64,000 nucleotides of DNA from Pochonia chlamydosporia 170 (Eukaryota; Ascomycota; Sordariomycetes; Hypocreales; Clavicipitaceae). The stretch spans positions 1,860,001 to 1,924,000 of the forward strand of contig NC_035793.1 in NCBI RefSeq assembly GCF_001653235.2, written 5' to 3'. Below, piece by piece: positions 60,442-61,572 of this stretch (within the stretch, counting starts at the first letter, position 1; each line of letters starts with the position of its first letter). The notes beneath the pieces were generated by a model, which had not been told where the DNA came from, made no database searches, and saw only the letters and a program-made list of their open reading frames with translations. A program made the position numbers and the translations under genes.

Positions 60442-61572
60442 ATGGAAACCGGCCAACTCATCGAAGCGATTAATCACTTCACATTCCACCTTCAGAAGCA
60501 GCATAATTGGCAGCCAATATGTGGCATCAACGTCTTTTCGTGCCTCCTCATGGCTGCCTACGCATCCGACGGCAATTCTCGTCAGGAGTTTCTCCAAGCT
60601 TTGTGCCTCGGTGACATTTCCATTCGGAGTGCCGCTAGAAGCTTAAAGGAGTTCATAGAAGATATAGAACGTGCCGGGAATCTAGTCAACGCGAATTCGA
60701 TGTGGCACCGACCAGACAGGAGGTTGACTGCTCAGTTCCAGGATGCTATGCAGGACTTCAAGGTTGTTGTAGGAGCAATAGACAGAGACGGTATTGCACG
60801 TTTCATCTACAAAGCCACCCAGGGACTCATCGACCCTGATGTATCCGTCTCGTCAGACATGGCGCTAATGCTATACTCTTGTTTCTACTTCAAAGGGAAT
60901 TGGAAAACACCATTTGACGGCGGAAATACATTCTCTTCGACATTTTACACCTTCCAAGGCGATTCCATGCCATGCGATATGATGACCATGAGCGACTCGT
61001 TTGACTATTTGGAAACTTCGACCTACCAAGCACTGATATTACCATATGAACTAGGAGATATGACGGTGTCACAGCCACACTGGGCTGCGCTGTTCGTATT
61101 GTCGAAAAATCCTACAGAAGCTGGCCTCCACGAAGCCATAGCCGGAGTGACTCAAGACCCGCATTCATGGTCACTAGTATTCGAGCCCTGTGCCCCAACT
61201 GGGATGGATATCTACATTCCAAAGTTCTCTCTCGCTACCAAGAGCGATTTGATCCCTAGTCTACGAAGAATGGGCGTATCCAGCGCGTTACATCCGTCAC
61301 TTGACTTCTGGGCCACGACTCCTAGGGAGGAAACTTGGATATCGAATATTGAACACATGGTGTATCTGAAGTGTGATGAGTTAGGTACCGAGGTGGCTGC
61401 TGTGACGGAGTGCTCTGCAGAAGATGGTTTGGATGAAGGAAACGTGCATTTTATGCTGGATCGACCGTTTTGGATGGCCGTCTTTGATCGAGTGTCGGAG
61501 GTGGTACTTTGTTCTGGGGTTGTACAAGATGTTGGAGGGATTGATCGTGCGACTGAGAATTATCCGTCTTGA
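60442..61572 (+). CDS. intracellular-type serpin (serine protease inhibitor family)
   Basis: A single exon encodes 376 residues, the normal length of a serpin core. Helix A starts at once (LIEAINHFTFHLQKQ), with no signal peptide, so the protein is probably cytosolic. Landmarks in order: YFKGNWKTPF at 149-158 (strand 3A), FYTFQGDSMPCDMM, YQALILPYEL, MDIYIPKFSLATKSDLIPSL from 255, ISNIEHMVYLKCDELGTE, and the shutter/C-terminal block LDRPFWMAVFDRVSEVVLCS near 339. The hinge is G315-T-E-V-A-A-V-T322 (P15-P8), with small residues as in inhibitory serpins. Counting as in alpha-1-antitrypsin puts P1 at Gly329 with Leu330 as P1'. The loop is very acidic (Glu323, Glu327, Asp328, Asp331, Glu332). The usual SP after helix A is SC here (Ser33-Cys34). 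Target and function are unknown. Confidence 0.88.
   Translation: METGQLIEAINHFTFHLQKQHNWQPICGINVFSCLLMAAYASDGNSRQEFLQALCLGDISIRSAARSLKEFIEDIERAGNLVNANSMWHRPDRRLTAQFQDAMQDFKVVVGAIDRDGIARFIYKATQGLIDPDVSVSSDMALMLYSCFYFKGNWKTPFDGGNTFSSTFYTFQGDSMPCDMMTMSDSFDYLETSTYQALILPYELGDMTVSQPHWAALFVLSKNPTEAGLHEAIAGVTQDPHSWSLVFEPCAPTGMDIYIPKFSLATKSDLIPSLRRMGVSSALHPSLDFWATTPREETWISNIEHMVYLKCDELGTEVAAVTECSAEDGLDEGNVHFMLDRPFWMAVFDRVSEVVLCSGVVQDVGGIDRATENYPS

What the first reader, a model, noticed from the sequence alone, without database searches (positions are those of the whole stretch)
60442..61572. Full-length serpin gene in an ascomycete genome
The 376-residue product keeps serpin landmarks from helix A to the C-terminal shutter block, including a hinge (G-T-E-V-A-A-V-T, residues 315-322) of inhibitory type. 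To my knowledge serpins are common in animals, plants and some prokaryotes but rare in fungi, the known example being the celpin of a gut fungus. There is no signal peptide, so it may guard the cytosol, like clade B serpins, rather than act on a host. The gene is intronless while most neighbours have introns, and it sits beside a 5 kb gene-free stretch, which is compatible with horizontal acquisition but does not prove it.
Basis: partly seen in the sequence, partly recalled or inferred. Interest (0 to 1): 0.88.

Follow-up and report, generated by a model that had tools for sequence, protein, structure and literature searches.

The report
Odd fungal serpin with altered core
The gene encodes a complete serpin, a mousetrap-type protease inhibitor, in a fungus; ascomycete serpins are already known, but this one belongs to a very small divergent branch whose loop chemistry and central lock differ from those of the other serpins compared.

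The parts
60442..61572 (+). serpin coding sequence, 376 aa, one exon
60520..60531 (+). start of helix B, residues C27-G28-I29-N30 in place of the canonical S53-P54-x-S56 of the shutter
   Evidence: alignment of 120 serpins; predicted helix 28-40, block pLDDT 94-95, supports this register; hhalign placed a gap here instead
60784..60816 (+). helix F, residues 115-125; the conserved Asn and Trp (N158, W160 by recalled numbering) are A119 and F121
60877..60882 (+). strand 3A, S146-C147 in place of the canonical N186-A187 of the shutter
   Evidence: N186 is Asn in 117 of 117 other serpins aligned; gapless region
61354..61356 (+). H305 = shutter histidine H334, retained
61378..61407 (+). hinge E313 to T322 (E-L-G-T-E-V-A-A-V-T), P17 to P8
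   Evidence: residues 309-323 are the most conserved 15-residue stretch against P0002, rank 1 of 345
61408..61464 (+). rest of the reactive-centre loop, residues 323-341; core net charge -5; model pLDDT under 50 at 319-331
61423..61428 (+). D328-G329, candidate P1-P1' bond (inferred from the place of the conserved Arg in the ascomycete clade)
62124..64000 (-). neighbouring ankyrin-repeat gene, apparently in several exons (frames continue past the window to about 64047), with a weak, below-cut-off PigL_N/HeLo-like N-terminus; context, not part of the serpin
54268..55203 (-). neighbouring aldo-keto reductase; context

Best explanation
A cytosolic, probably inhibitory serpin of Pochonia chlamydosporia that is far diverged from the usual ascomycete serpins (or came in separately) and bears a different bait and a re-wired lock. 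Working model: an intracellular protease cuts the acidic reactive loop, probably after D328; the hinge then inserts the loop into sheet A and traps the enzyme covalently. The barrier to sheet opening, usually set by N186 with S56 and H334, would here be set by an Asn moved to helix B (N30) with a Ser on strand 3A (S146) and the retained His (H305). Shown: a serpin family match and predicted fold, a conserved hinge, residue exchanges shared by three proteins, an acidic loop, no hydrophobic leader. Inferred: inhibition, the cut site, the target class, the place of action and the new hydrogen bonds.
For: Family and fold. Hinge: E342, G344, T345, P10 Ala and P8 Thr kept in all three, P11 Ala or Gly; residues 309-323 are the best-conserved 15-residue stretch between the window protein and its 43% relative (12 of 15 against 158 of 359 overall, rank 1 of 345 overlapping stretches); 0 of 31 substitutions against P0001 fall in residues 305-345. 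Shutter: the same C-G-I-N and S-C in all three members, while N186 is kept in 117, S56 in 116, P54 in 115 and S53 in 114 of the 117 others; W194 and H334 are kept in all three. PMC8198886 passages: N186 bonds H334, S56 and N116. Loop: net core charge -5 (window, P0001) and -8 (P0002), the lowest among 117 others being -4; Asp at G+13 in 3 of 3, against Arg in 23 of 25 ascomycete-clade rows and Asp in 2 of 92 others. Cytosol: 27 of 28 window-group and ascomycete-clade rows lack a hydrophobic N-terminus (12-residue mean of 1.8 or more), while 75 of 92 others have one.
Against: No biochemistry. P12 is Val, against Ala in 115 of 117 others, although Val P12 also occurs in the SERPINB6-like P0005; P9 is Val, as in 34 of 117. 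14 of 47 highly conserved columns are departed from (median of the others 2, maximum 8), as would be expected if the constraint for loop insertion had relaxed. The loop tip is poorly conserved against P0002 (4 of 11 aligned, residues 324-336). Changes at S53, N186 or H334 make human antitrypsin polymerise (PMC8198886, PMC12333946, passages). The S56-to-N reading rests on the alignment register: HMMER, MAFFT and the model agree, but hhalign put a 7-residue gap there. The P1 position is inferred from loop position only. No coordinates were available to check bonds.
Confidence: 0.55

Rival explanations
1. Non-inhibitory serpin: the fold is kept for binding or scaffolding, or as a substrate, and the shutter decayed because loop insertion is no longer selected.
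For: Shutter and helix-F residues lost, P12 Val, 14 of 47 conserved columns departed from; loop tip poorly conserved between window and P0002 (4 of 11 aligned in residues 324-336).
Against: The hinge is the most conserved stretch in the group, whereas non-inhibitory serpins usually lose the hinge (recalled; the abstract start of PMC2770083, seen only in the listing, uses the hinge motif to separate the two). The odd shutter is itself conserved between proteins 43% identical (13 of 19 in residues 24-42), which decay would not give.
Confidence: 0.32
2. Inhibitory serpin aimed at a trypsin-like or subtilisin-like protease, as its paralogue may be; the Asp at G+13 is not P1 and the charge is incidental. 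(A sub-case of the inhibitory reading, so the odds overlap.)
For: Loop length 27 from hinge Gly to Pro equals that of 17 of 25 ascomycete-clade rows; the genome has many matched subtilisin (45) and trypsin (12) stretches.
Against: No Arg or Lys from the hinge Gly to the conserved Pro except the Arg next to that Pro, in all three members; the acidic loop is shared by all three.
Confidence: 0.25
3. Gene of separate horizontal origin (for example a bacterial donor), unrelated to the ascomycete clade within serpins.
For: In the 65-row tree the group sits outside the 25-row ascomycete clade, on the other side of a starred branch (99/96).
Against: Stem length 1.89, so long-branch error is likely; forcing one clade is not rejected (AU p 0.302). 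Composition is native; leaderless like the ascomycete clade and unlike most others. A pattern scan of prokaryote genomes, which used only two short peptide patterns and is therefore insensitive, confirmed no relative.
Confidence: 0.2
4. Decaying duplicate or contamination.
For: A serpin fragment exists elsewhere in the genome (C13).
Against: Intact frame; 92% relative with an identical 305-345 segment; 5.36-Mb contig.
Confidence: 0.03

Closest known systems
Ascomycete 'proteinase inhibitor I4' / myco-serpin family (Pochonia P0006, Metarhizium P0008-P0010; M. brunneum MBR_07878 of PMC13236867, whose sequence was not fetched, so its place in this clade was not tested)
   Same: Serpin family and leaderless; one exon in P0006; loop length 27 in 17 of 25 rows
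   Different: Canonical shutter, loop core charge 0 to +5 with Arg at G+13 in 23 of 25 rows; window protein is 26-29% identical to P0006 in local alignments
P0001 and P0002 (records without an organism name)
   Same: Same altered shutter, same hinge E-x-G-T-E-V, acidic loop with Asp at G+13
   Different: 92% and 43% identity to the window protein
Celpin of Piromyces (known here only as cited in PMC13236867)
   Same: Fungal serpin domain
   Different: Multi-domain cellulosome protein according to PMC13236867; window protein has only PF00079 in Pfam
Vertebrate intracellular clade B serpins (e.g. P0005, SERPINB6-like of Mastomys)
   Same: No leader (recalled for clade B); Val at P12 in P0005
   Different: 24% identity; not grouped with it in the tree
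Arabidopsis Serpin1, a metacaspase 9 inhibitor by the title of a reference listed in PMC5613156
   Same: A serpin that can act on a caspase-fold enzyme (title only)
   Different: Arg-type bait (recalled); only the paralogue P0006 was compared with a plant serpin, 3le2_A 'Serpin-ZX', E 4.4e-31 (that this is Serpin1 is recalled)

Membership tests
Serpin superfamily (PF00079, MEROPS I4) | Full-length match to the family profile above the curated cut-off | tested here: met
   160.8 bits against 27, profile 2-368 of 370
Serpin superfamily (PF00079, MEROPS I4) | Serpin fold: three sheets, about nine helices, exposed loop | tested here: met
Serpins with the canonical shutter (highly conserved, not obligatory for the superfamily) | S53, S56, N186, H334 | tested here: not met
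   C, N, S, H in the window protein
Inhibitory serpins | Hinge P17-P8 of the form E-x-G-T-E-(small)4-T | tested here: inconclusive
   E-L-G-T-E-V-A-A-V-T: two of the four are Val; P9 Val is common (34 of 117), P12 Val rare (1 of 117)
Inhibitory serpins | Stressed-to-relaxed transition and covalent protease complex | not testable with these tools
   needs purified protein
Ascomycete myco-serpin clade (P0006 type) | Falls inside the clade in a tree | tested here: inconclusive
   outside the 25-row clade (100/100), but one clade of both not rejected, p-AU 0.302
Ascomycete myco-serpin clade (P0006 type) | Arg at G+13 of the loop | tested here: not met
   Asp; Arg in 23 of 25 clade rows
Celpin | Further cellulosome domains besides the serpin domain | tested here: not met
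   only PF00079 in the Pfam scan
Clade B intracellular serpins | Groups with clade B in a tree that samples animals | not tested
   only two rows named as animal (P0005, P0118) were in the tree

The most novel reading that the evidence does not exclude
A fungal, cytosolic serpin lineage in which the serpin shutter has been re-built by a reciprocal exchange (Ser56 to Asn on helix B, Asn186 to Ser on strand 3A) while loop insertion still works, and whose acidic, Asp-containing bait traps an Asp-specific, caspase-type intracellular protease. I know of no serpin shown to work with a transposed shutter (recall and the searches listed under Tried and rejected), and it would be an Asp-directed protease inhibitor in a kingdom whose metacaspases are thought to prefer Arg or Lys (recalled).
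Probability: 0.2. Interest if true: 0.75.

Novelty: new variant of a known kind. Interest (0 to 1): 0.45.

Why it matters
The serpin shutter is among the most conserved sites of the superfamily, and single changes at S53, N186 or H334 make human antitrypsin polymerise (PMC8198886, PMC12333946; passages). A natural lineage that lacks the canonical residues at S53, P54, S56 and N186, yet keeps its hinge, is a ready test of whether that exact network or merely some Asn-Ser-His arrangement is needed. It also suggests that this fungus holds two divergent, leaderless serpin types with opposite loop charge, which points to targets inside the fungal cell as well as in a host.

Tried and rejected
Contamination and pseudogene: judged unlikely. 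Compositional evidence of recent transfer: looked for, not found; GC3 is about 0.8 standard deviations below the 15 other long ORFs of the window, and dinucleotide (RIP-type) ratios around it are unremarkable. A disulfide between C27 and C147: considered because both are shared by all three members, dropped because no coordinates were available and strand geometry (recalled) puts residue 187 on the other face. Link with the neighbouring ankyrin/HeLo-like and DUF676-type genes: noted only; the Pfam matches of the N-terminal piece are below cut-off. Prokaryote and virus collections: pattern scans with alignment A1 gave 124 and 70 pattern matches but no confirmed relative; each used only two short peptide patterns. 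NCBIfam: no hit for the window protein, P0006 or P0002. The profile search and the paralogue search scored only the 8000 and 7999 candidates sharing most words, and one search lists 120 of 3630 hits. The model was fed 85, and the tree built from 65, of the 120 rows of the main alignment. Literature: the listings (several cut: 20 of 31, 20 of 21, 12 of 37 and 8 of 19 papers shown) showed no paper on this gene or on a serpin with this shutter; the library lacks most subscription journals. In the first loop-charge script loop ends were mis-set for P0002 and a number of other rows; the counts used are those. Rows left out before the counts: P0017, P0020, P0033, P0034, P0068, P0069, P0081, P0116, P0128 (fragments, partial, doubled or oversized), leaving the window plus 119 of 128 proteins. 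The 117 comparison rows were found by similarity to the paralogue or the window protein, mostly bacterial or unnamed, so they are no even sample of all serpins. Foldseek against PDB was never accepted by the queue; only the VIA-align second look ran.

Full report

Which organism. A second intact serpin in the same genome (C11:255479-256534, L001) is 100% identical over 365 aa to NCBI's 'proteinase inhibitor I4 [Pochonia chlamydosporia 170]', whose longest contig of 580,226 bases equals the length of C11. The window is therefore taken to be from P. chlamydosporia 170, a parasite of nematode eggs and root endophyte (lifestyle recalled). A third PF00079 match on C13 is only a fragment, 57% identical to residues 95-213 of that paralogue, with no other piece of it found in the 9 kb fetched; copia-like debris (recognised by eye) lies nearby.

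Is a serpin in an ascomycete new? No. The search with the paralogue returned 3,630 hits, of which 120 were listed. Rows P0006-P0032 lie at 38-100% identity; after them come a doubled protein (29%), a partial one (35%) and rows at about 32% and below that are, where named, mostly bacterial. In a 65-row tree the 25 of these 27 that were used (not P0017 and P0020) form one clade at 100/100. PMC13236867 (abstract and passages read) reports a Metarhizium brunneum serpin whose knockout is less virulent to Drosophila and states that relatives occur in Trichophyton, Aspergillus and Fusarium; PMC8233489 (passages) leaves fungal serpins unclassified as orphans; PMC9820262 (passages) covers microsporidian serpins.

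What is unusual. The window protein lies outside that clade in the tree. Among 5.8 billion proteins its own search found five relatives: P0001 (92%), P0002 (43%), and three at 24-27%; a profile of the first three added only distant rows. In an alignment of the window protein and 119 others, the window protein, P0001 and P0002 replace S53-P54-x-S56 with C-G-x-N and N186-A187 with S-C (antitrypsin numbering; assigned from recalled landmarks). In the 117 other rows N186 is Asn in 117, S56 Ser in 116, P54 Pro in 115 and S53 Ser in 114. H334, W194, E342, G344, T345, P369 and F370 are kept in all three. Over 47 columns that are at least 85% conserved among those 117, the window protein departs in 14, P0001 in 14 and P0002 in 16; the others have a median of 2 and a maximum of 8. 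The departures include both the shutter behind strand 3A and helix F in front of it (N158 to Ala, W160 to Phe or His).

The exchange. PMC8198886 (passages) describes N186 as bonding H334, S56 and N116, and the H334-N186 bond as part of the barrier to sheet opening. Here Asn appears at position 56 and Ser at 186, with H334 kept, and the residue I take as N116 (N85) kept. That reads as a reciprocal exchange within one contact network. It depends on the register of helix B: HMMER and MAFFT place a deletion of about six residues before it, and the model starts helix B at residue 28 with block confidence 94-95, which agrees; hhalign instead deletes seven residues across the motif. Under either register the canonical motif is missing, and N186-to-S is in a gapless region.

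The loop. From hinge Gly to the conserved Pro the loop is 27 residues in the window protein, as in 17 of 25 ascomycete-clade rows. Its core carries net charge -5 (P0002: -8); the 117 other serpins range from -4 upward, the ascomycete clade from 0 to +5. At hinge Gly +13 the clade has Arg in 23 of 25 rows, the window group Asp in 3 of 3, and 92 others Asp in 2. If the clade's Arg marks P1, the window group has exchanged a basic bait for an acidic one. That P1 call is inferred.

Constraint. Against P0001 there are 31 substitutions, none in residues 305-345. Against P0002 the best-conserved 15-residue stretch of the whole protein is 309-323, the hinge (12 of 15; overall 158 of 359; rank 1 of 345 overlapping stretches; the binomial tail of 0.005 is not corrected for choosing the stretch). 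Stretches in helix B with the odd motif and at 277-291 follow with 11 of 15. The loop tip is not conserved (4 of 11). So hinge and odd shutter look maintained. No dN/dS was computed, because DNA of the relatives was not available.

Where it acts. None of the window group and one of 25 ascomycete-clade rows reaches a hydrophobic N-terminal mean of 1.8, against 75 of 92 others. This suggests cytosolic serpins as a trait of these fungi, though unconventional secretion is not excluded and SignalP was not run. The genome offers caspase-fold (PF00656, 8 matched stretches), CHAT (5), trypsin (12) and subtilisin (45) candidates as targets; these are matched stretches, not gene counts, and nothing links any of them to this serpin.

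Origin. Composition is native. The tree puts the group outside the ascomycete clade, but its stem is 1.89 changes per column, and holding both fungal groups together costs 6.7 log units, p-AU 0.302. Old duplication followed by fast change, and separate acquisition, both stay open.

Verdict. A real, intact, divergent serpin; the headline claim is ordinary by now; the altered shutter with an acidic bait is a new variant worth a bench test.

Noticed in passing
L001:1474-2571 (G000 C11:255479-256534): Second intact serpin of the genome, leaderless, intronless, canonical shutter, Arg at G+13; flanked by a pepsin-type aspartyl protease and an AAT-family gene.
   Followed up: yes
L006:4103-4462, - strand (G000 C13:360109-360468 in the family search): Fragment of a third serpin, 57% identical to residues 95-213 of the C11 gene, near a contig end, an Asp f 4-like gene (just under its cut-off) and a frame that looks like a copia-type RNase H by eye.
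   Followed up: partly
ascomycete serpin clade P0006-P0032: 23 of 25 aligned rows share Arg at the same loop position and 24 of 25 lack a hydrophobic leader, which suggests a common intracellular Arg-specific target such as a metacaspase; not tested.
   Followed up: partly
window 62124-64000, - strand, and L008:7803-8318: Ankyrin gene with weak PigL_N/HeLo-like N-terminus and a DUF676 hydrolase beside the serpin; the combination resembles fungal incompatibility-type genes (resemblance recalled).
   Followed up: no
window 1787-1880 and 2058-2153, - strand: Two tRNA genes about 270 bases apart, each spanning 94-96 bases, so probably with introns.
   Followed up: no
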